Source: a virus. From it: 56,809 nucleotides of DNA. The DNA is taken from positions 1 to 56,809 of IMG/VR virus record IMGVR_UViG_3300047495_000028; one strand, written 5' to 3'. The number at the start of each line of letters is the position of its first letter. The stretch's first letter is position 1. The notes below the pieces were generated by a model. It saw only the letters and a program-made list of their open reading frames with translations. It was not told the DNA's origin and made no database searches. This document shows positions 2,326-35,738 of this stretch, piece by piece. The translations under genes were made by a program, and so were the position numbers.

Positions 2326-2873
2326 CCGACAATCTCAACGCGCTGCATGAGAAAATGGACTGCGTTGAGGGGCAGATTGCGGCAATCCTTCGCGCGCTGC
2401 GACCGCACCAACCCGCGATACGCCTCATTGAAGGCGTTGTTTTCAAAATTGAATCAGGAGAAATCGTCATGTCTGGCACAACCTCGACCACCTACACGCT
2501 GACCAATGCCGCCAATCCCGCCGCCGCCACGCGCTTCCTGGGCGTCGAGGATATTGTCGGCGGCACCACGGTGCCCACGATCACGTCCAGCGACCCGACC
2601 AAGCTCGCCATCGTCGTGGGCACCCTGTCGGCCGCGAGCGCGACCGGCACGTCGTTGCTGAATTGGGGCGCCTATCCGCTTGATGCGGCAGCCGAGACCA
2701 ATGACGCCGTGACCGTGACGCTCGCGCTGCCAGGCGGCGAGACCGAGGTCATTGATTTTGTGATCAGCGGCGCCCCGGTTCCGCCGCCGGCGCCGGAGAC
2801 GTTTGCGGACGATCCGACCTCGGCTATTGGCGCGTGGGCTGGGGCGCCGGCTGTTCCCGCAACGCCGGTTTGA
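2283..2873 (+). CDS. Hypothetical protein with coiled-coil N-terminus and beta-rich C-terminus, 196 aa
   Basis: ATG 2283 is preceded by a strong GGAGG. Residues 1-45 form an amphipathic helix (HLDALTDNLNALHEKMDCVE) likely to be a short coiled coil; residues 63-196 are Thr/Val/Gly-rich and beta-like, resembling phage decoration or immunoglobulin-like domains. A second in-frame ATG at 2469 also has AGGAG at the proper distance, so the beta domain may be made separately. No exact family recognised. It sits among lysis genes, upstream of a lipoprotein. Confidence 0.6.
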   Translation: MHCCDDIRRHLDALTDNLNALHEKMDCVEGQIAAILRALRPHQPAIRLIEGVVFKIESGEIVMSGTTSTTYTLTNAANPAAATRFLGVEDIVGGTTVPTITSSDPTKLAIVVGTLSAASATGTSLLNWGAYPLDAAAETNDAVTVTLALPGGETEVIDFVISGAPVPPPAPETFADDPTSAIGAWAGAPAVPATPV

Positions 2874-2884
2874 GGAGCCCGTCC

Positions 2885-3262
2885 ATGCGCACCCTCATCC
2901 CCACCCTCGCCGCCGCACTCGCGCTCACCGGATGCGCCTCGACCTCGACCGGCAGCTACCAGTCTCAACTCACCGCGCTCGCCGCCGGGGTGCCCGTGCT
3001 AGAGGCCGCGCTAGCCACCTATCCGGGGCTGGTGACGCCCGCTGTCGCCAAGGCCGAGGGCAACCTCAACGCCGCCCTGGCCGCGCTCCAAGCCTCGCCC
3101 GCACCCACGTCCGCCGCGGCTGTGCTGACGGATATCCGCGCCGTGGCCTCTGCCATGCCGGCGAGCGTGCTATCCCCAGCGCACCAGGCCGAGCTATCCG
3201 CGGCGCTGGCGCTGGCTCAGGTGATCGCTGGGGCGCTTGCGGGGACGCCTGCCGCGTCGTAG
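2885..3262 (+). CDS. Lipoprotein of the lysis block (possible outer-membrane spanin)
   Basis: ATG 2885 follows GAGGAG. The N-terminus has a basic start, a hydrophobic helix and a lipobox, LTGC at residues 15-18 (cleavage before Cys18), so the mature protein is a periplasmic lipoprotein. The rest is Ala-rich helical with conserved small residues, about 108 residues. In Gram-negative phages a small lipoprotein near the endolysin is often the o-spanin that fuses inner and outer membranes, but o-spanins usually are Pro-rich and paired with a nested i-spanin, which I do not see here. Last gene before the terminator at 3291. Confidence 0.65.
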   Translation: MRTLIPTLAAALALTGCASTSTGSYQSQLTALAAGVPVLEAALATYPGLVTPAVAKAEGNLNAALAALQASPAPTSAAAVLTDIRAVASAMPASVLSPAHQAELSAALALAQVIAGALAGTPAAS

Positions 3263-3284
3263 GCTAGTCAACACACTAGGCCGC

Positions 3285-3683
3285 TCAGTCAACGCCTTGG
3301 CCTTCGGGCTGGGGCGTTTTTTGTTGCGCGTCAAAATCCGCCTCCGTAAATCGGTTGCGTTCCTCCACGAATTTCAGGTTTTCAATCGCCGAGAATGGCC
3401 AGCCCATCGCGCGCGCCAATTCTGCTGCTCTGCCGCGCGATATTGAGCCGTAGAGCCACGCGCTGGCGATGCACAGTTTGAGCCCGGCCTCGTTTTCCGG
3501 CGTGAGGACCGGGCGGTCACGTGGGCGGGCCTCGACTTCCCGCGTTGTTGCCGCGCGCCACAGCCCGCAGTGGCACGATAGATAGCCGGTAACCAGGTCA
3601 ATATCCGCCTCGGCGTGATCGCACTCGTCGGCGGGCTCGTAGGGGTCGTAATCGTGCCAGTCGTCGGTTTCATCGTCGGTCAT
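3285..3683 (-). CDS. Hypothetical acidic protein, 132 aa
   Basis: The start at 3683 overlaps the upstream stop as ATGA; a longer frame from 3722 has no such junction. The N-terminus is very acidic (MTDDETDDWHDYDPYEPADE), followed by a CHC motif near residue 36 and a helical C-terminal domain (GRAAELARAMGWPFSAIENL). I do not recognise a family. It is the last gene of the leftward operon, and its final codons contain the hairpin that terminates the opposing operon. Confidence 0.65.
   Translation of the reverse strand: MTDDETDDWHDYDPYEPADECDHAEADIDLVTGYLSCHCGLWRAATTREVEARPRDRPVLTPENEAGLKLCIASAWLYGSISRGRAAELARAMGWPFSAIENLKFVEERNRFTEADFDAQQKTPQPEGQGVD
3291..3322 (+). terminator. Rho-independent terminator of the rightward lysis operon
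   Basis: AACGCCTTGGCC and GGCTGGGGCGTT pair as a 12-base-pair stem (with G-U pairs) closed by a UUCG tetraloop, followed by a T-run at 3317-3322. It lies 29 bases after the lipoprotein stop and within the last codons of the convergent leftward gene, where the early and late transcripts meet. Confidence 0.85.
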
Positions 3684-6177: not shown

Positions 6178-6383
6178 TTTTCCTCCACAATCCTGACGCG
6201 AAACGCCATCGCTCCTTGTTTTTTGGCAAACGCGATTTCGTCATCATCCGGCCATCCGAGCGCATGACGCCACACTGTGGCTTCGTCTGCGCAGTATTCG
6301 ACGTGCAGTGGCCTGCCTGGATAGTCCACGGCCCAGCCCAACCACGATATTTCGCTCATCGTTTGGCGGACGGTTACGGTCAT
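6174..6383 (-). CDS. Hypothetical protein, 69 aa
   Basis: The ATG at 6383 overlaps the stop of the Gp37/Gp68 gene. The product begins with a beta strand (MTVTVRQTMSEISWLGW) and ends with a beta-strand-like AMAFRVRIVEEK, with an acidic loop between. No known family. Confidence 0.6.
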   Translation of the reverse strand: MTVTVRQTMSEISWLGWAVDYPGRPLHVEYCADEATVWRHALGWPDDDEIAFAKKQGAMAFRVRIVEEK

Positions 6384-7138
6384 GGGTTTACCTCCGGGAA
6401 AGCCGTGTGGCGCACGCCATCAAGTTTCGGCAGCGATACCACCCGACCGTCGCGCATGTCCTGCTTGAGAAAGAACGCAACGCCCTGCGCGGCGCACGCA
6501 TCGCGAATGTGGCGCATCGCAGTGGCCGGCGTCTCGCGTGCGTGCGGCCCGCTCTCGCAGCCTGCAATCAGCCAGTGGATGCCGGACAGGTCTACGTCGC
6601 CCAGGTGCGACAGGGCAGGCTCGTAGCTGACAAATCGCACGGCGGCCGGCGTCTGCCGAAGATCGTCAATGCGGTCTTTGCGCTGGCGGTCCTCGACGGA
6701 AACGCCAAGCCAAAGATTGCGTGGCGGATCAGTGCAGTTCTTTGCAAACCAATCGCGCATCCCTTCCGACCGCTTCGTGAGCACCTGAAACGTGTGATGC
6801 GGTAGTTTGCAGGCGGCGACCACGACCGCCCATCGCGCTTTCTCGCTGGCGTCCGGATGAAACAGGTCCGACATGCTGTTGACGAAGATACGCCGGCCTT
6901 TGCGCCATCCGTATGGCTTGCGCATAATGTGCTCGGGAGCGTCCCGGACTTCACCAGTCCATATCGGACCGGCTTTGCTGCCATCGGTCAGCCCTTCATA
7001 GCCTGGAACACTCATTCGCTCCAATCGCCGCGTCATTATCATCGCGTAGCAGTTGGTGCAGCCTGGCGATATGAGGCGGCACCCGCGTGTCGGATTCCAC
7101 GTCGCGTCTGTCCACTCGATGCCGGTTTTAGCGCTCAT
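6380..7138 (-). CDS. Phage Gp37/Gp68 family protein (DUF5131, radical-SAM-like)
   Basis: ATG 7138 overlaps the previous stop as ATGA; the 30 extra upstream codons are shadow. The protein opens with IEWTDATWNPTRGC, the hallmark of the Gp37/Gp68 family, followed by a three-Cys motif (Cys20, Cys27, Cys30: GCRLISPGCTNCYA) that resembles a radical-SAM iron-sulphur site. Further conserved blocks are NSMSDLFHPD, QVLTKR, LWLGVSVE and the WLIAGCESG segment. The family is found in phages and mycobacterial phages; its substrate is unknown, though a nucleotide- or RNA-modifying role is often suspected. Its place in the operon carrying QueD-like and transglycosylase-like genes is notable. Confidence 0.8.
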   Translation of the reverse strand: MSAKTGIEWTDATWNPTRGCRLISPGCTNCYAMIMTRRLERMSVPGYEGLTDGSKAGPIWTGEVRDAPEHIMRKPYGWRKGRRIFVNSMSDLFHPDASEKARWAVVVAACKLPHHTFQVLTKRSEGMRDWFAKNCTDPPRNLWLGVSVEDRQRKDRIDDLRQTPAAVRFVSYEPALSHLGDVDLSGIHWLIAGCESGPHARETPATAMRHIRDACAAQGVAFFLKQDMRDGRVVSLPKLDGVRHTAFPEVNP

Positions 7139-7437
7139 GGCAGCAGCGCCTCCAGCGCCCGAACGTGCGCCGTGCGTGCCGCCCGCTCCTGGTTGAGCCA
7201 GTCGAGCTTTTCCTGTAGCGCGCCGCACAAACGGGCGGCGTTGTTGCGCTTGTGCTCCTGCTCATGGATTTCCTCCATGATTTCATGAACGCGGTGCTCG
7301 GCATCGGTCAGTGCGCGGCGCAGTTCTCTTGCGCGGATCGTGAAAGTTTTGCCGCTCCCGTCGTTGTAATCGGGGTTCGGGCCACTCGCTGTAGCTTGCA
7401 TGACCGGGGCATTGTCATAGCCTTTTTCGTCGCTCAA
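7135..7437 (-). CDS. Coiled-coil protein, 100 aa
   Basis: The start chosen is TTG 7437, with AAGGAG eight bases upstream and an overlap with the stop of the gene at 7434. Residues 30-95 form one long charged helix (ALTDAEHRVHEIMEEIHEQE ...), a clear coiled coil. The frame is open back to 7677 but that part is Arg-rich and looks like out-of-frame sequence. Function unknown. Confidence 0.6.
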   Translation of the reverse strand: MSDEKGYDNAPVMQATASGPNPDYNDGSGKTFTIRARELRRALTDAEHRVHEIMEEIHEQEHKRNNAARLCGALQEKLDWLNQERAARTAHVRALEALLP

Positions 7438-7686: not shown

Positions 7687-7929
7687 TCACGTGCAATCGG
7701 TGTCTGATGGGCAATCTACAGTATGACTGCTGTCAGGTCCGCCGCAGTCTGGGCACAGGTATTTGGCCTCCGCCGCTCGCCTAACCCAATACGCGGTAAT
7801 TTTCTTCGCGTCCCTCCGGGCAATCTCCTGCGCTAGGTCGTTATCCGACAATAGCGCAAGCGCGTCCGCAACCTTGCAACATTCAGCGTCGCAATCGCAG
7901 TCCGGCACGAGTCTGGGGCATGCAGCCAT
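7687..7929 (-). CDS. Cys-rich hypothetical protein, 80 aa
   Basis: Start at 7929 overlaps the stop of the Sak4-like gene. The N-terminus has four cysteines (CPRLVPDCDCDAECC), a central helix (LAQEIARRDAKKITAYWVRR) and a C-terminal CPDCGG pair plus two more cysteines, suggesting a zinc ribbon. No family recognised. The 112 bases downstream, 7575-7686, hold no gene I can defend. Confidence 0.55.
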   Translation of the reverse strand: MAACPRLVPDCDCDAECCKVADALALLSDNDLAQEIARRDAKKITAYWVRRAAEAKYLCPDCGGPDSSHTVDCPSDTDCT

Positions 7930-9011
7930 TACCCCGCGTCCGTCATGCCAGCCCCCGCGCCGCGCATGATGGCGTCGAGTTCTGCGTCGTTGTCGCGGGT
8001 GACTGCGTGCGGCCTGCCATTGGGCCGCTGGACGCCACCAGAAAGCGCCGCGTTTTCACTAAACGGGTCGGACAAGTCCGTATCGGCATCGGCCTTATCC
8101 ATGGCGGCGCGCTTTGCCTCTTCGTCGGCCGCGTTTGCGATGGACAAGAAATTGTCCAGGCGAGCGTGTAAAAACTTCTTATCTTCCTTCGAAAGCCCGC
8201 TGTAATAGACGCGGAACAGATTGACGCCCTTGCCGGCCTCTTCCGTCGCTTTCATGGTCAGCGCGCGTTGGTAAGGCGTCGTCAAATCTTTGCCACCGAG
8301 CCATGCCGCAAGTCTCCGGCCGGTTTCTTCGGTGATGTATTCTTGCCCCTCAAAAATTGGCGCAAGCACACCTGGGCACTTACCACCGCGCGCCGGATCG
8401 GTAGTCCATCGTCCCATGCCGAGCATGTGCACCATAATTGTCATGTCGTAGCGGATGGCCTTTTCTTGCACGGGCACCGTATCGCCTAGCACGTAAGACT
8501 TTTTGCCCTTCTCATCGATCTGCTCAATATATGGCTGCTTGCCGCGCGCGCATACCAGCACATGAATTCCGCACTGTTTCCAGTCGCCTGTCATCTTCCC
8601 CAAACGGCGTTTGGGCTGGCTCCATTTCGCCAACTGATTCGGGTTCTTGCTGTCGGTGTTCTCCACAATTTCGAGAATTCCACCGTCCGCATCCCACACG
8701 TGACTGCCGCTATCCACGACAACGACGGTGCACCCGGCTTCGATAAACTCACGGAGCGCAATGCGATACCGCTCGGGGGTGAATGGCGGCGTTAGCTGAC
8801 CATACATATAGCCGCCTGGCACGCGGTCCATATACATCCGGCCGCGCTGGCCGCCCTCGGTGTCCAGCAAGCCGCGCTTGTTCGGATCGGGCTCAAGCCC
8901 GGACGCCATCAGAAGTGCGGATAGCGTTTTTCCGGTCTCTGACATGCCGAAGAACGTGACAATGAATTTCATGCCCTCGCGCGTAACCGGAGCAATTTGC
9001 AAAATACCCAT
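7929..9011 (-). CDS. Sak4-like RecA-family ATPase
   Basis: A 360-residue AAA_24/RecA-fold protein. Walker A is GMSETGKT at 22-29 and Walker B ends at Asp100 (TVVVVDS), followed by a Trp-rich loop and a conserved 'KWSQPKRRLGKM' region. This is the layout of Sak4-type phage recombinases, single-strand annealing ATPases that work with a nuclease. The exonuclease gene lies immediately upstream in the operon, four bases away, so the two form a recombination module. The C-terminal 80 residues are charged and probably disordered. The stop overlaps the next gene. Confidence 0.75.
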   Translation of the reverse strand: MGILQIAPVTREGMKFIVTFFGMSETGKTLSALLMASGLEPDPNKRGLLDTEGGQRGRMYMDRVPGGYMYGQLTPPFTPERYRIALREFIEAGCTVVVVDSGSHVWDADGGILEIVENTDSKNPNQLAKWSQPKRRLGKMTGDWKQCGIHVLVCARGKQPYIEQIDEKGKKSYVLGDTVPVQEKAIRYDMTIMVHMLGMGRWTTDPARGGKCPGVLAPIFEGQEYITEETGRRLAAWLGGKDLTTPYQRALTMKATEEAGKGVNLFRVYYSGLSKEDKKFLHARLDNFLSIANAADEEAKRAAMDKADADTDLSDPFSENAALSGGVQRPNGRPHAVTRDNDAELDAIMRGAGAGMTDAG

Positions 9012-9014
9012 GGT

Positions 9015-9887
9015 CTAAAGCCTTTCGTCGATTTGGGCATACGCCCACGATGGAATGTCGCACTGAAACGCCAGATCGTGATCAGGCTTGTCGGGATGCC
9101 GATATCCGGGCCAATCACGCCGTTCCAGGCATCGCGCGAACCGCTCGGCGGCGCGGTCGTTTTCTTCCTGACCAGATTGAATTGCTTGTAACGTCAGTTC
9201 GCACACCGAAACCAGATACGGCGCTTTAATCTCCTGGTTGATGAACCAGTAATGATCGGGACGCTTGCCGAATACAGCCTCGTAGCCTTCGAGATACCAC
9301 GCGGCACGACGATGATAGCCTAGATCGTAGGCGTGTTTACCAAAAAATTGCGGATTGGCGTTCGACGTGGTTTTATAATCGTTGATGTGCGCGCCGCTAT
9401 CGTGGATGAAGTCGGGGCGAGCCCGGCACCATATGCCGGTCCCTGCGTGTTTCCAGAATAGCGATTGCTCGGTCTTTCCGCCCTGGAAAGCATTAGCTGC
9501 GAACTGATGCGAGGTAAATGCGCTTTGCGCGGCGATAATTTGATCCATCTGCTTCATCAAGATCGGCGTTTTTCCTGATGCGCGCGCCGTATCGCGGGCC
9601 AGTTTGGCCGCTCCGGTGCGATAGTCGTCGTGCTCTATGATTTTGACCTTGGCCGCAAACTGATCGGGTTCCAAAAAAAGAACGTGGGCGACAGCCCCGA
9701 TGGTAAACCTGTCCTCACCTCCAGGTTCCGACCATTCCGGGTTCAGGCGCTTTGAATTCTGGAAGCACTTTGCTGGCGCTACCAAAATATCGTTGATCAT
9801 TCCGGCGGACAAGCTGGGCGTCTCGCACGGGTCGGCGTGGTAGCGTTCACTGCTCATTTCGTAGCAGCCGGGTGTGTTGATCTTCAT
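9015..9887 (-). CDS. PD-(D/E)XK exonuclease (RecE/RecB-like)
   Basis: This 290-residue protein carries the PD-(D/E)XK core: Glu140 in GGKTEQSLFW, Pro158-Asp159 in ARPDF, and Asp170-Tyr-Lys172 in NDYKTT, with a downstream QxxxY-like region (LGYHRRAAWYLEGY). Such proteins resect double-stranded DNA ends in phage recombination, leaving single strands for the annealing protein, here the Sak4-like ATPase just downstream. Length and N-terminal 'YHADP...LSAG' pattern match the DUF3799-type exonucleases. Confidence 0.8.
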   Translation of the reverse strand: MKINTPGCYEMSSERYHADPCETPSLSAGMINDILVAPAKCFQNSKRLNPEWSEPGGEDRFTIGAVAHVLFLEPDQFAAKVKIIEHDDYRTGAAKLARDTARASGKTPILMKQMDQIIAAQSAFTSHQFAANAFQGGKTEQSLFWKHAGTGIWCRARPDFIHDSGAHINDYKTTSNANPQFFGKHAYDLGYHRRAAWYLEGYEAVFGKRPDHYWFINQEIKAPYLVSVCELTLQAIQSGQEENDRAAERFARCLERRDWPGYRHPDKPDHDLAFQCDIPSWAYAQIDERL

Positions 9888-9899
9888 GTCAGCAATGCC

Positions 9900-11069
9900 T
9901 CAGTATTTGATTTCGACGGCGGGAATATCCCCACGCGCCACAGCCACCACGACCGCTTTCGCCTGATCCTCAGTCAGCCCGCACAAGATCAGCGCGCGCA
10001 TGGCCGCTTGGTTGATCCGCGCCCGGTGCGCTTTGTTTTCGGCGCGCTTACGGTCTTCGAGTTCCTGCTTGCGCTTTGCCTCCGCAGCCTCGTATTCGGC
10101 CTTTGCGCGCTCGCGTTCGATCCGCAGGCGTTCGGCCTCGACTGCGGCGGCCTGGCGGCGCTCGGCCTCCTCGGCGGCCTGCTTGGCCTGTTCCTCGGCG
10201 GCGATGCGCAACCGCTCGGCGCGCTGTTCTGCGGCGAGTTTGTCCGCCTCAGCCTGCCGCGCCTGGGCGGCCGCTTTTTCCTCGGCCTCCCGCGCCTGTT
10301 GCTGGGCTTTGGCGGTGGCATGGGCGGCTTCGTCCAGCTTGCGCTGGGCCTCCTGTTCAGCCGCCACACGCGCTGCCTCAGCGGCCTTGCGCGCAAGCTC
10401 GGCCTCTCGGTGCCGCTGCTGCTCTTCGGCAGCCTGGCGCTCGCGCTCCGCCTGCTCGGCGCGGAGTTTGGCGAGTTCCGCCGCCTCGGCTTCGCGGCGC
10501 TCGGCTTGGGCGAGCATGTCGCGGAGCTTGTCACTTACTTCGGCGGCAAGATTGCATGCTCGGGCGCGGAAGTCGATTTGCCAATCACGCGAGCCGACGA
10601 AAACAAGCATTTGATCGCGGCGGGCGCGGATTGCCTCCGACGACGGAAGTTCGCCAAATATCAGCATGGCCTCAATCCTGGCGAGCGCATCGGTGTGGCT
10701 CTTGACGCGTTCTGCCTCGGCAGCCTCGTAAGCGTCGCGCTCTGCGGTTACTTCGGCTTGCAGCGCCTCCATGGCACTGCGCCATTTTCGGCGTTCCGCG
10801 TCCACCTGGTCAATCTCGGCGCGCTTGGTGGAATTTAGCTGCTTGCCCAGTTCGTCGATCTTGCGTTTGCGGCTCGCCAGTTCGCGGTCCAGCCGACCGA
10901 TGGCGGCGCGACCTTCTGGCGTGGATATGTCCCGCTTGATGGAGCGGACTTCGCGCTGGATGCGTTCGATCAGGCTATCCACTGACTTCGGCGCAAAGAT
11001 TTGAACCGCCGTCATCGTTTCGATGATAGCGAGCGCCGATCCGGTGGGCTGCTCTATGGTGTCGCTCAT
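9900..11069 (-). CDS. Long coiled-coil protein, 389 aa
   Basis: Residues 1-160 are helical and moderately charged, containing IERIQREVRSIKRDISTPEG and GRLDRELASRKRKIDELGKQ; residues 175-345 are an extreme Ala/Glu/Arg/Lys coiled coil. A globular end follows (AALILCGL-like segment with TEDQAKAVVVAVARGDIPAV). Proteins of this shape commonly sit beside phage recombination nucleases, probably as a partner or scaffold of end processing. The high GC strand asymmetry also produces long but meaningless frames on the other strand. Confidence 0.65.
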   Translation of the reverse strand: MSDTIEQPTGSALAIIETMTAVQIFAPKSVDSLIERIQREVRSIKRDISTPEGRAAIGRLDRELASRKRKIDELGKQLNSTKRAEIDQVDAERRKWRSAMEALQAEVTAERDAYEAAEAERVKSHTDALARIEAMLIFGELPSSEAIRARRDQMLVFVGSRDWQIDFRARACNLAAEVSDKLRDMLAQAERREAEAAELAKLRAEQAERERQAAEEQQRHREAELARKAAEAARVAAEQEAQRKLDEAAHATAKAQQQAREAEEKAAAQARQAEADKLAAEQRAERLRIAAEEQAKQAAEEAERRQAAAVEAERLRIERERAKAEYEAAEAKRKQELEDRKRAENKAHRARINQAAMRALILCGLTEDQAKAVVVAVARGDIPAVEIKY

Positions 11070-12110: not shown

Positions 12111-12869
12111 TTATAGTTGCCTTTTGTCAACAGACGGCGCTGTGGCGCGGATCATATCGCGGATGGCGATAGCTTCGTTGGTCCAGGCAAGCGCGATGGC
12201 TGATGCACCATTGTTCTCGGGCGTGTCGCCGGGGCGGATCGCGGTGAAAAATACTTCGCGCGGGCTATGACTCGACGTGTGAAAAATTACTCCCGGCGCA
12301 ACGTCAATCGGATATCCGTCATACTTGTGATTAGGATATCGTGATTTGGCTAGCGTCCCAGCCAAGCAAGCGCAATCACCGCTATACGTCGAGCCGTCAA
12401 TGCGACCCTCAACAATAGCCGACCGCAAAAATTCTAGTTCGTTTGCCAAGCGCAAAACTTCTGCAAGAAAATCTTGTTTGACGTCACGCAGGTCCGCGCC
12501 ACGCAGGTCCGCGCCACCCAGGTCCGCGTCACGCAGGTCCGCGTCACCCAGGTCCGCGCCACGCAGGTCCGCGCCACGCAGGTTCGCGTCACGCAGGTTC
12601 GCGTCACCCAGGTCCGCGCCACCCAGGTCCGCGCCACGCAGGTCCGCGCCACGCAGGTTCGCGCCACGCAGGTTCGCGCCACGCAGGTCCGCGCCACGCA
12701 GGTCCGCGCCACGCAGGTCCGCGCCACGCAGGTTCGCGCCACCGGCAATAGCCGATTTTACGGCAAACCCCAATTGCACGCTCGCGCTCCATCCCGCAGC
12801 TTCTGCGGTCAGTTCGCATGTGTATTGGACCGCGCCAGTCCAGTAGTTTTTGATGCTGATTGTCGTCAT
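12111..12869 (-). CDS. Pentapeptide-repeat protein, 252 aa
   Basis: Residues 45-129 are seventeen uninterrupted A(D/N)L(R/G)x pentapeptides, which fold as a right-handed quadrilateral beta helix. The flanks differ: an N-terminal domain ([20 protein letters not shown]) and a C-terminal domain of about 120 residues with no repeats ([26 protein letters not shown]). Some pentapeptide proteins such as MfpA and Qnr mimic DNA and bind gyrase; others have unknown roles. Phage copies usually are structural or modulatory unknowns. It is near the start of the early leftward operon, so it is probably made early. The repeats are unusually regular at DNA level. Confidence 0.8.
12483..12737. repeat. Seventeen 15-bp tandem repeats coding pentapeptides
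   Basis: The + strand reads as near-identical 15-mers of the form CGCAGGTCCGCGCCA for 255 bases, differing only at a few positions. Variation is confined to codons that change D/N, R/G and G/D. The near identity of synonymous positions implies recent expansion or continuing homogenisation by slippage or recombination. Confidence 0.9.
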
Positions 12870-15809: not shown

Positions 15810-15938
15810 GTGCGCAGGGATGAAATGGAAGTTGCTTTAGACAAAGTAATTGCTGATGCAATGAATTCCGGCGTCACTTTGGACGAAGTTATTGACACGT
15901 TGGATTCGATGAAGGACCGCTACGGCGAAGAGGAATGA
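15810..15938 (+). CDS. Small acidic protein, 42 aa
   Basis: GTG 15810 has AAAGGAG seven to eight bases upstream, and the TGA overlaps the rusA ATG. The peptide is a strongly acidic helix (MRRDEMEVALDKVIADAMNS ...). No family recognised. Coupling to rusA suggests it is translated with the resolvase. Confidence 0.6.
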   Translation: MRRDEMEVALDKVIADAMNSGVTLDEVIDTLDSMKDRYGEEE

Positions 15939-16408
15939 CCCGCGGCTACCCCGGCGACTCGCCGCTAAGCCAGGCAAAAATTGGTGCGGCGATACGCCCT
16001 ATAGTCGTGACAATACCGGGTGAAATGCGCGGCAAAGGGAGGCCACGGTTTTCGCGTCGGGGTGGATTTGTCAAAGTGCACACCGACGAAAAAACAGCCA
16101 GTGCCGAGACGTGGATTAAAGCCTGCGCGATTGACCAGGTGGGAATGTTGCTTCTCTCCGGCCCCCTCCGTGTTCAAATTTCGGTGGGGGTTGGGGTTGC
16201 TGATAGTTGGAGCAAAAAACGAAAGGAGCGCGCATTAATGCAACTGGATCACCCTACCGGGAAGCCCGATTTCGACAATGTTGCGAAACTCATTTGCGAT
16301 GCGCTCAACGGCATACTCTGGAAAGACGATTCGCAGATCGTGGCTTGCTCATTCCTGAAATACTACTCCGCAAGGCCCGCAGCCGAGTTGTGTGTGTGGG
16401 ACCTGTGA
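15935..16408 (+). CDS. rusA: RusA-like Holliday junction resolvase
   Basis: 157 residues with the RusA signature: TIPGEMRGKGRPRFS near the N-terminus, then the metal-binding acidic cluster HPTGKPDFDNVAKLICDALN and WKDDSQI. RusA-type enzymes cut four-way junctions formed in recombination and replication before packaging. ATG 15935 overlaps the previous stop. It works naturally with the Sak4/exonuclease pair encoded leftward. Confidence 0.85.
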   Translation: MTRGYPGDSPLSQAKIGAAIRPIVVTIPGEMRGKGRPRFSRRGGFVKVHTDEKTASAETWIKACAIDQVGMLLLSGPLRVQISVGVGVADSWSKKRKERALMQLDHPTGKPDFDNVAKLICDALNGILWKDDSQIVACSFLKYYSARPAAELCVWDL

Positions 16409-33375: not shown

Positions 33376-33783
33376 ATGCCCGAAACCGAACACAGTCCCG
33401 AAAAGCCGGTTCCGCTCTACACAACCGCCGCCGACATCGTTGATCATCCTGCGTTCCGCCCGCAGACGGCGCGCATTGAAGGTCGCAGTGTATCGCCTGG
33501 CCTGCGCCCGATCAGCGGCAGCTTGGCGCAGCCAACATCCAAGGGCGAGGCGGTCGAGCACGTGTTCGGGCCGCAGCAGTCCGCCGTTGATCCGCACGCC
33601 GCCGGTCTACAGGTTGACCACGATCCGGTGACACGCAACGACAGCCGCGTCATCACCCGCGCCGATGGCGCGATGGAACTGCCGCAGATGGATGCCGAAT
33701 CGGGAACCGCGCCCGGCCCGAGTGGCGCACCAAGCACGGCCGCCGCGCCCGCCGCGCCAAAAAGCGAAACGCCCAAGGCTTGA
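33376..33783 (+). CDS. Head accessory hypothetical protein, 135 aa
   Basis: AGGAG precedes ATG 33376. Acidic, with an Ala/Pro-rich tail (PSTAAAPAAPKSETPKA). Likely a head-associated phage protein of unknown role. Its stop codon lies at the left border of the TnpB element, so the element did not interrupt it. Confidence 0.6.
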   Translation: MPETEHSPEKPVPLYTTAADIVDHPAFRPQTARIEGRSVSPGLRPISGSLAQPTSKGEAVEHVFGPQQSAVDPHAAGLQVDHDPVTRNDSRVITRADGAMELPQMDAESGTAPGPSGAPSTAAAPAAPKSETPKA

Positions 33784-33815
33784 GCAACTTTAAGCGCAAC
33801 CCCCTCCCTTTAGGC

Positions 33816-35096
33816 ATGGTCGTTCGCAAAGGCATGAAATACCGCGCCTACCCAACCCCGGAGCAGGAGGCATTCCTCCCGCGCATCTCCGGGTGCGTGC
33901 GGCTGGTTTTCAACCTCGCACTCAAACAACGGGAGATGTTCGGCAGGCCCGGACGGTCAATCCGGTATGAAGGCCAGCGGGCCGAATTGAAGGAACTGAA
34001 GGCTCACGCCGACTTCCTTCGGGACATCCCGCATCATTGTCTGCAAGAAGGTTTGGTAGATCTGCAAACCGCCTTCGACCGCTTCTTCAAAGGTATCTCA
34101 GGCTATCCGCAACCGCGCCTGAAAGGTCAGGACGACGGTTTCCGGTTCCCCGACCCGAAGCAGTTCTACGTCGCGACGACCGACGACCCGAAATTCGTGA
34201 TGCTCCATCTTCCCAAGATGGGGAAGAAAAAGGGCGACTACGGCGCGCTTCGGTTACGGCTGCATCGTCCCCTTCAAGGCAAGATCAGGTCGGTCACGTT
34301 GAGCCACGAAGCTGGCATCTGGCACGCATCCTTCCTGTGCGAAGTCGAGGTTGCCGAACCGGCACAACCGTTCGGTGAAGCCGTTGGCGTGGATCGCGGT
34401 GTAGCGGTGCCGATCATGGTTTCGGACGGCACGACGCCGCATGTGCCGCTTCCGACAGAGCGCCAAAGGCTCCGCGAGCGGCGGTTGCACAAGGCCATTT
34501 CCCGTCGCAAGCGGGGATCGAATAACCGGCGCGCGGCTGTTCGTGCGCTTGGCAGGTACAAGGCAAAGGAGGCAAGGCGGAGGCGGGACGCGCTGCACAA
34601 GGCCACCACACATCTGGCGAAAAACCACAGCCTGATCGTGATCGAGGATTTGCGCGTCAAAAACATGACTGCATCGGCGGCTGGGACCACCGAAGAACCC
34701 GGTGTCAATGTGGCGCAGAAGTCCGGTCTGAACCGCGCGATCCTATCGGTTGGATGGGGCGCATCGGCGGTGATGCTGGGATACAAGACGATTTGGTATG
34801 GCTCAGAGTTGCGGCGGGTGCCTCCTATGGGCACCAGTCAGGAATGCTCCGTGTGCCACCAGATCGACGTGGCATCCCGGATCAGCCGCGACGTGTTCCG
34901 CTGCACGGCATGTGGTCACACCAAGCACGCAGACCTGAATGCGTCGGAGACAATCCTCTATCGCGGATTGCAATTGCCTACCCCGAAGGACACTCGTTCG
35001 GAGTCAGCCTGTGGAGTCCTCTGCGCTAAGCAAGACATGGAAGCAGGAAACAAAAGCCGCAAGGCCCGAAGCCCCGTCATTCATGACGGGGAGTAG
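33816..35096 (+). CDS. tnpB: TnpB RNA-guided nuclease
   Basis: Start at ATG 33816 or 33834; the frame is open from TTG 33780. Residues are counted from 33816. The N-terminal KYRAYPTPEQEAFL and the central region match OrfB. RuvC-like residues are intact: Asp193 in GVDRG, Glu277 in LIVIEDL and Asp373 in HADLNASE; the zinc finger is Cys344, Cys347, Cys363, Cys366. TnpB uses an RNA from its own 3' end to cut DNA next to a short motif, which preserves the element after transposition. With no TnpA here it may depend on a partner elsewhere or serve the phage, for instance against rival phages lacking the element. Confidence 0.9.
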   Translation: MVVRKGMKYRAYPTPEQEAFLPRISGCVRLVFNLALKQREMFGRPGRSIRYEGQRAELKELKAHADFLRDIPHHCLQEGLVDLQTAFDRFFKGISGYPQPRLKGQDDGFRFPDPKQFYVATTDDPKFVMLHLPKMGKKKGDYGALRLRLHRPLQGKIRSVTLSHEAGIWHASFLCEVEVAEPAQPFGEAVGVDRGVAVPIMVSDGTTPHVPLPTERQRLRERRLHKAISRRKRGSNNRRAAVRALGRYKAKEARRRRDALHKATTHLAKNHSLIVIEDLRVKNMTASAAGTTEEPGVNVAQKSGLNRAILSVGWGASAVMLGYKTIWYGSELRRVPPMGTSQECSVCHQIDVASRISRDVFRCTACGHTKHADLNASETILYRGLQLPTPKDTRSESACGVLCAKQDMEAGNKSRKARSPVIHDGE

Positions 35097-35116
35097 TCAC
35101 ACGTGTATTCCTCGCT
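34950..35116 (+). ncRNA. Predicted omegaRNA region of TnpB, with guide entering the connector gene
   Basis: In known TnpB systems the guide RNA comes from the 3' end of tnpB plus the right end, and the guide is the flanking DNA. By analogy, the guide here would be the bases immediately after 35100, that is the first codons of the head-tail connector gene. The boundaries are inference. Confidence 0.35.
35072..35091 (+). repeat. Right-end hairpin of TnpB element
   Basis: CCCCGTCA-TTCA-TGACGGGG forms a perfect 8-base-pair stem and 4-base loop directly before the tnpB stop (TAG 35094-35096). Such subterminal hairpins are recognised by TnpA and form part of the omegaRNA. The GGGGAG that ends it also provides the Shine-Dalgarno for GTG 35103. 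Confidence 0.85.
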
Positions 35117-35738
35117 CAGTGTCATCACGCCCCCAGCCATTGAACCGGTAACGGTAGCACAGGCCGCGCAGCACTGCCGGATTGATTCGCCGACAGAAGA
35201 CCCGATGCTGACGACATACATCACCACGGCGCGCGAACTGGTTGAGCAATACCTCAACCGCGCGCTGATCACGCAAACACTTCAAGTCGTATTCGCTCAA
35301 CGGCCCGCACCGCCGGGTCTATGGCCCTACGTCGCCGCCGGGCCGATTTTCGTTTTGCCGCTGTGGTTTAACTGGGCAGACGTGATTACGCACTGGCTTG
35401 ATTTGCCACGCGCGCCGGCCCAAGCCGTGAACTCCGTGTCTGTTGGCACCTGGGGGCAGGCCGATATGCCTCTCGTGCTCAATCAAAGCTACCAGACGGA
35501 TTTGACCATGCAGCCAGGTCGCATCCGTTCATGGGGATTTGGCGTCGGCAACCAAGACCACCTCACGGTGCAATACGCGGCTGGCTATGGTGATACAGCG
35601 GATTTCGTCCCGGCACGGATCAAGCTGGCAGTTTTGTGGCTTGTCGCTTGGCTCTATGAGCACCGTGGCGATGTTGGTCCGGATTGGCCGCCTGGTGTAA
35701 TTGCGTTACTCTCTGATCGCTTGGTGACATTTGGTTGA
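35103..35738 (+). CDS. Head-tail connector protein (gp6-like)
   Basis: GTG 35103 follows GGGGAG contributed by the TnpB right end. 211 residues with the gp6/phiE125-gp8 pattern: VTVAQAAQHCRIDSPTEDPM, ITTARELVEQYLNRALITQT, then beta-rich middle and a helical end (RIKLAVLWLVAWLYEHRGD). It attaches beneath the portal and starts the neck. Confidence 0.8.
   Translation: MYSSLSVITPPAIEPVTVAQAAQHCRIDSPTEDPMLTTYITTARELVEQYLNRALITQTLQVVFAQRPAPPGLWPYVAAGPIFVLPLWFNWADVITHWLDLPRAPAQAVNSVSVGTWGQADMPLVLNQSYQTDLTMQPGRIRSWGFGVGNQDHLTVQYAAGYGDTADFVPARIKLAVLWLVAWLYEHRGDVGPDWPPGVIALLSDRLVTFG

What the first reader, a model, noticed from the sequence alone, without database searches (positions are those of the whole stretch)
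33784..35103. Standalone, apparently active TnpB inserted in the head module and supplying the next gene's ribosome binding site
The tnpB gene keeps all three RuvC acidic residues and both zinc-finger Cys pairs, but no tnpA is present. It lies exactly between the stop of a head accessory gene and the start of the head-tail connector. Its right-end hairpin ends in GGGGAG, placed nine bases before the connector's GTG start. If TnpB is guided by flanking DNA as in known systems, its guide would be the connector gene itself, so it could cut related phages that lack the insertion and spread the element or exclude rivals. The exclusion role is inference.
Basis: partly seen in the sequence, partly recalled or inferred. 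Interest (0 to 1): 0.7.

Follow-up and report, generated by a model that had tools for sequence, protein, structure and literature searches.

The report
Transposase-less TnpB stranded in phage
A jumping gene in the capsid-gene cluster of a bacterial virus has lost everything it needs to jump but kept, under selection, its RNA-guided DNA cutter and guide RNA, so it most likely persists or spreads by cutting sister viruses that lack it; a tidy new example of a known kind of selfish element rather than a new kind.

Summary
Window 33794-35100 is an IS200/IS605-type element with a full-length TnpB (33816-35096; RuvC D193/E277/D373 and four zinc Cys intact). A 96%-identical copy in another phage contig (L003) still has tnpA. 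It shows that the window copy lost 471 bp: tnpA, the 3' arm of the left-end hairpin and the tnpB promoter. TnpB and the right end survived. TnpB is under purifying selection (dN/dS 0.12; 8 nonsynonymous versus 22 synonymous changes on the window branch). The last ~150 nt carry the double signature of an overlapping guide RNA: synonymous sites nearly frozen, and compensatory pairs. The guide would be ACGTGTATTCCTCGCTCAGT, the connector gene's start codon and first codons, with TTTAA in TAM position. So "transposition-dead, nuclease-ready" is well supported. Homing or exclusion remains inference: about 30 relatives have the uninterrupted head module, but none examined has the TAM plus a matching target, so only near-identical phages could be cut. 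The donated ribosome-binding site is real in sequence, but its G's lie in the right-end hairpin; translational coupling from tnpB's stop, 6 nt upstream of the connector start, is likelier. RNA-guided homing and gene drive by TnpB are already proposed or shown.

The parts
33781..33783 (+). TGA stop of the upstream head accessory gene (33376-33783)
33788..33793 (+). CTTTAA abutting the left end; putative TAM (TTTAA, 33789-33793)
   Evidence: shared by window and L003 right at the element boundary; L004 has GCTAA. TTTAA is rare: 29 on both strands of the window. TTTAA is the TAM of ISAam1 TnpB (PMC11224200)
33794..33815 (+). truncated left end: GCGCAACCCCCTCCC kept, 3' arm of hairpin deleted; 471-bp deletion junction near 33813-33815
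   Evidence: DNA hairpin z -4.2 in L003, +0.57 in window
33816..35096 (+). tnpB, 426 aa, RNA-guided endonuclease; D193, E277, D373; Cys 344, 347, 363, 366
   Evidence: AF2 model matches TnpB-omegaRNA complexes 8h1j and 8exa, E 9e-23 and 1e-19
34951..35100 (+). putative omegaRNA (reRNA) scaffold overlapping the tnpB 3' end
   Evidence: third-position divergence 0.067 versus 0.37 elsewhere; consensus fold, 97.8% of pair cells kept, 4 compensatory pairs
35072..35091 (+). right-end hairpin CCCCGTCA-TTCA-TGACGGGG
   Evidence: DNA fold z -4.0; C-G to T-A compensatory change in L004
35088..35093 (+). GGGGAG, Shine-Dalgarno-like, nine bases before GTG; GGGG paired in the hairpin
   Evidence: duplex -9.5 versus -4.2 kcal/mol for the joined flanks; unpaired probability about 0 for GGGG
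35101..35120 (+). predicted guide ACGTGTATTCCTCGCTCAGT = connector start codon and first codons
   Evidence: all three copies share sequence up to GTCAC (35100) and diverge right after it
35103..35738 (+). head-tail connector (gp6/gp8-like), predicted guide target
   Evidence: TIGR02215 E 1.6e-21, PF05135

Best explanation
An IS200/IS605-family element inserted after a TTTAA between two head genes of an HK97-capsid phage with a contractile tail, probably infecting a member of the acetic-acid-bacteria family such as Acidiphilium. A 471-bp deletion then removed tnpA, half of the left-end hairpin and the tnpB promoter, so it can no longer transpose alone and probably not with TnpA supplied in trans. 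TnpB and its 3'-overlapping guide RNA stayed intact and under selection, presumably now transcribed with the phage head genes. It most likely works as an RNA-guided homing nuclease: the guide RNA reads the first codons of the connector gene, TnpB cuts TTTAA-flanked copies of that sequence in nearly identical phage genomes lacking the insertion, and recombination copies the element in. The insertion protects its own genome because it separates TAM from target. The connector is translated by coupling to tnpB termination, helped by the GGGGAG once the hairpin is melted. Shown by sequence: anatomy, deletion, selection, RNA conservation. Inferred: expression, cleavage, homing, coupling.
For: Element ends and the 471-bp deletion from alignment with two tnpA-bearing copies. 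TnpB full length with intact active site and the fold of known TnpB-omegaRNA complexes. Purifying selection: window branch 8 nonsynonymous and 22 synonymous, P at most 3e-6 against neutrality. Omega-RNA signature: in the last 45 codons only 2 synonymous but 14 nonsynonymous codon differences from L004, against 119 and 63 elsewhere; 4 compensated pairs; the encoded C-terminus is predicted disordered, pLDDT 32-40. Both window-specific changes in that stretch (35052, 35067) fall in unpaired columns of the fold. Capsid and connector are 300-940 bp apart in nearly all relatives with both genes; none has tnpB there. The phage carries an exonuclease VIII-like PD-(D/E)XK gene, an AAA_24 ATPase and a RusA resolvase that could support recombination. 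Literature: homing proposed by Karvelis 2021 (PMC8612924); TnpB gene drive shown on plasmids (PMC11870625).
Against: No near-identical empty-site phage was found. None of 13 uninterrupted relatives has the TAM or more than 9 of 12 matches to the proximal guide. The deletion could be recent, in which case the selection seen predates it. The TAM rests on two copies, with GCTAA in the third. tnpB has lost its own promoter and has no obvious ribosome-binding site, so expression is assumed. No expression or cleavage data.
Confidence: 0.6

Rival explanations
1. Recent, functionless relic: the element hopped in, lost tnpA shortly before sampling, and TnpB simply has not decayed yet. The insertion is tolerated because it lies between genes and leaves the connector translatable.
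For: Isolated tnpB genes are a recognised configuration of these elements (PMC8612924). No sister phage shares the insertion in available data. The left end is broken. The age of the deletion on the branch is unknown.
Against: TnpB and the omegaRNA are constrained on the window branch at least as strongly as on the tnpA-bearing branch (8:22 versus 8:14). The deletion spared the tnpB ATG and all guide-RNA parts.
Confidence: 0.28
2. Exclusion or competition function: TnpB is kept because it destroys co-infecting or superinfecting phages that lack the insertion, benefiting the phage rather than only the element.
For: The guide targets a structural gene's 5' end; TnpB interference against plasmids is known (PMC8612924); polyploid intracellular setting as in the plasmid gene drive (PMC11870625).
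Against: TTTAA plus the 12 nt nearest to it are not found in any relative examined, so the target range is at most near-identical phages; a position among head genes suggests late expression.
Confidence: 0.15
3. Domesticated regulator: TnpB binding or processing its own mRNA 3' end tunes translation of the connector, whose start codon lies inside the guide segment.
For: Guide and connector start codon overlap; TnpB processes its own mRNA (PMC10278001); the SD-like motif is inside the RE hairpin.
Against: The processing shown is 5' of the omegaRNA, not 3'; RuvC is intact, unlike nuclease-dead TnpB-derived regulators; no comparative support.
Confidence: 0.06

Closest known systems
IS200/IS605 elements with tnpA and tnpB (e.g. 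ISDra2); here L003 and the Acidiphilium multivorum plasmid copy L004
   Same: Same TnpB (96% and 82% aa), same right end, same left-end sequence GCGCAACCCCCTCCCTT
   Different: Window copy lacks tnpA, the left-end hairpin and the tnpB promoter; it sits in a phage head operon
TnpB gene drive of insertion sequences on plasmids (PMC11870625)
   Same: RNA-guided cutting of insertion-free copies would bias inheritance in a polyploid replicon
   Different: Phage genome, no TnpA, not demonstrated experimentally here
Free-standing or intron homing endonucleases of phages (from own knowledge)
   Same: Nuclease gene inserted where it would cut the empty allele; the insertion protects its carrier
   Different: Specificity would come from an RNA copied from the flanking gene, not from protein-DNA contacts
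tnpA-less TnpB in Komagataeibacter phages phiKX1 and phiKX2 (L165, L166)
   Same: TnpB without an annotated tnpA in isolated phages of related hosts
   Different: 41.5% aa identity; not in the head module; a left-end hairpin-like sequence is still visible

Membership tests
TnpB (RNA-guided endonuclease, NF040570) | Full-length match with RuvC DED and zinc finger | tested here: met
TnpB (RNA-guided endonuclease, NF040570) | omegaRNA overlapping the tnpB 3' end, ending at RE, guide outside the element | tested here: met
   comparative evidence only; no RNA data
TnpB (RNA-guided endonuclease, NF040570) | TAM-dependent DNA cleavage | not testable with these tools
   needs a bench assay; active-site residues intact
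IS200/IS605 element, autonomous | Y1 transposase TnpA in the element | tested here: not met
   absent from the whole window; deleted relative to L003 and L004
IS200/IS605 element, autonomous | Left-end subterminal hairpin | tested here: not met
   z +0.57 versus -4.2 and -4.0 in relatives
IS200/IS605 element, autonomous | Right-end subterminal hairpin | tested here: met
   compensatory pair
IS200/IS605 element, autonomous | Insertion 3' of a fixed short target (TAM) | tested here: inconclusive
   TTTAA in window and L003, GCTAA in L004
Homing endonuclease-like element | Insertion interrupts its own recognition site; empty alleles exist | tested here: inconclusive
   TAM and guide target are separated by the element; empty loci found only in distant relatives, without a matching target
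TldR (nuclease-dead TnpB-derived regulator; from own knowledge) | Loss of RuvC catalytic residues | tested here: not met
   D193, E277, D373 intact

The most novel reading that the evidence does not exclude
A phage has retained a transposition-dead TnpB as a freestanding RNA-guided homing or marker-exclusion nuclease, programmed by its insertion site against an essential head gene and expressed with the head genes, with the connector gene's translation wired to tnpB through the right-end hairpin.
Probability: 0.35. Interest if true: 0.65.

Novelty: new member of a known kind. Interest (0 to 1): 0.42.

Why it matters
It separates cleanly, by a natural deletion, the two halves of an IS605 element: the jumping half is gone and the RNA-guided cutting half is kept under selection. 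That lets one test whether TnpB alone can sustain an element, as the homing and gene-drive model predicts, and phages, with co-infection and recombination, are a natural arena. Isolated phages with a similar arrangement (phiKX1 and phiKX2) make the test practical.

Tried and rejected
Single-protein scans for close relatives of the connector in viral contigs and of TnpB in genome contigs found none. The exact empty-site pattern TTTAAACGTGTATTCCTC gave one contig, L142, which is an unrelated phage and a chance match. Acetobacteraceae genomes (299-397 per search) held no prophage close enough for a base-level empty site and no copy of the left end; only 13 genomes of the Acidiphilium MAG's genus were available. 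No Rfam family matched the omegaRNA region. A TldR-like dead regulator was rejected because RuvC is intact. 'Strong free RBS' was rejected as stated because the motif is paired. A specific tie between this element type and start codons was not accepted: three phage insertions (window, L003, L061/L062) abut a start codon, but the plasmid copy does not, and phage intergenic gaps are short anyway. In L003 the joined flanks already carry an equally good SD.

Full report
WHAT IS THERE. The window is a virus record with an HK97-type head module followed by a contractile-tail module. Between a 135-aa head accessory gene (33376-33783) and the head-tail connector (35103-35738; TIGR02215 E 1.6e-21) lies a tnpB gene. 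Its native start is the ATG at 33816 (426 aa), not the upstream TTG that opens the ORF: the relatives align from that ATG. TnpB matches NCBI's guided_TnpB model over its whole length (E 3.4e-72). D193, E277, D373 and Cys 344, 347, 363, 366 are invariant in 17-19 aligned TnpBs. An AlphaFold2 model (pLDDT 78.5) finds TnpB-omegaRNA complexes first in the PDB (8h1j E 9e-23, 8exa E 1e-19).

EXACT ENDS AND THE DELETION. Two close relatives fix the boundaries: L003, an IMG/VR contig of a different phage with 96% identical TnpB, and L004, an Acidiphilium multivorum plasmid with 82% identical TnpB. Both keep a divergent tnpA upstream and an intact left-end hairpin CCCCTCCC-TTCA-GGGAGGGG. All three share sequence from GCGCAACCCCC to the right-end GTAGTCAC and diverge outside. 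The window copy is 33794-35100. Relative to L003 it lacks 471 bp, from the loop of the left-end hairpin to the bases just before the tnpB ATG: tnpA, the hairpin's 3' arm and the tnpB promoter region are gone. Folded as DNA, the left end has z -4.2 in L003, -4.0 in L004 and +0.57 in the window; the right end keeps z -4.0. Y1 transposases recognise both subterminal hairpins (established knowledge), so transposition in trans is unlikely too (inference).

STILL SELECTED. Pairwise dN/dS against L003 is 0.12. Polarised with L004, the window branch has 8 nonsynonymous and 22 synonymous changes (L003 branch 8 and 14). Under neutrality about 70-75% should be nonsynonymous; P is at most 3e-6 over kappa 1-6. 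Caveat: the branch includes time before the deletion.

GUIDE RNA. In the last 45 codons, third-position divergence from L004 drops to 0.067 from 0.37, while amino-acid changes do not drop: 2 synonymous and 14 nonsynonymous codon differences, against 119 and 63 elsewhere. This is the mark of an RNA under the coding sequence, and the encoded C-terminus is predicted disordered. The consensus fold of the last 150 nt keeps 97.8% of pair cells, with 4 pairs changed on both sides in only 3 sequences (10 of 500 shuffles reach this; slid controls pair 24-42%). The two changes specific to the window in that stretch (35052, 35067) lie in unpaired columns of the fold. No Rfam family matches. The guide should start at 35101: ACGTGTATTCCTCGCTCAGT, the connector's start codon and first codons. 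Its first 13 bases occur exactly once in the window, at the insertion itself, where the element separates them from the TAM, as expected for a protected locus.

TAM. TTTAA directly precedes the element in the window and L003, GCTAA in L004. TTTAA is rare here (29 on both strands of 56.8 kb) and is the known TAM of ISAam1 TnpB (PMC11224200). I treat it as likely, not proven.

EMPTY SITES. About 30 loci with homologous capsid and connector genes have no TnpB between them; where both genes are present, the distance is 300-940 bp in nearly all. Removing the element from the window leaves about 0.86 kb, close to the 845 bp of the nearest relative, L005 (capsid 76-77%, connector 55% identity). So the insertion is clean and derived. 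But none of 13 such loci checked base by base has TTTAA or more than 9 of 12 matches to the proximal guide, and no near-identical phage was found.

RIBOSOME BINDING SITE. GGGGAG ends nine bases before GTG. Its duplex with the anti-SD is -9.5 kcal/mol, against -4.2 for the joined flanks. However GGGG is the 3' arm of the -14.8 kcal/mol right-end hairpin and is predicted fully paired. tnpB's TAG lies 6 nt before GTG, so a terminating ribosome would melt the hairpin and could reinitiate; coupling is the more likely route (inference). Most uninterrupted relatives also start the connector within a few bases of the preceding stop with weak SDs, so coupling is probably ancestral. L003 (GTG directly after the RE) and L061/L062 (47% identical TnpB; AGGAGTAGTCACA-ATG) repeat the layout, but L004 does not, and L003's empty junction already has a strong SD, so a general rule is not shown.

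HOW IT MOST LIKELY WORKS. Transposition-dead, nuclease-competent: an RNA-guided homing element. TnpB homing was proposed with ISDra2 (PMC8612924), and TnpB-driven gene drive was shown on plasmids, where inactivating TnpA did not remove the advantage but inactivating TnpB's RuvC did (PMC11870625). The phage has recombination genes that could complete the copying: an exonuclease VIII-like PD-(D/E)XK gene, an AAA_24 ATPase and a RusA resolvase. Exclusion of rivals would follow only for near-identical phages. The main rival is a recent relic.

NOVELTY. New member of a known kind: tnpA-less TnpBs are a recognised configuration, and isolated Komagataeibacter phages phiKX1 and phiKX2 also carry one. 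What is unusual is the clarity of the dissection: a deletion removed only transposition parts while cutter and guide stayed constrained.

Noticed in passing
L165 and L166 (phiKX1 and phiKX2), 2492-3676: Isolated Komagataeibacter phages carry a TnpB without annotated tnpA, with only about 80 nt between a left-end hairpin-like sequence and the tnpB start; a practical test system.
   Followed up: partly
L061 and L062, 3430-5260: A 47%-identical TnpB element with tnpA in two phage contigs (identical over the fetched stretch) also ends in GGAGTAGTCAC and abuts an ATG by one base.
   Followed up: partly
L002 6978-8240: phiKM1 has an annotated transposase inserted in reverse orientation just after the same head genes.
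   Followed up: no
window 7929-11069 (-) and 15935-16408 (+): Recombination genes: AAA_24 ATPase, exonuclease VIII-like PD-(D/E)XK protein and an unknown gene in one cluster; RusA-like resolvase elsewhere.
   Followed up: partly
window 12111-12869 (-): Pentapeptide-repeat protein.
   Followed up: no
window 6380-7228 (-): DUF5131 / phrog_2045 protein of unknown function.
   Followed up: no
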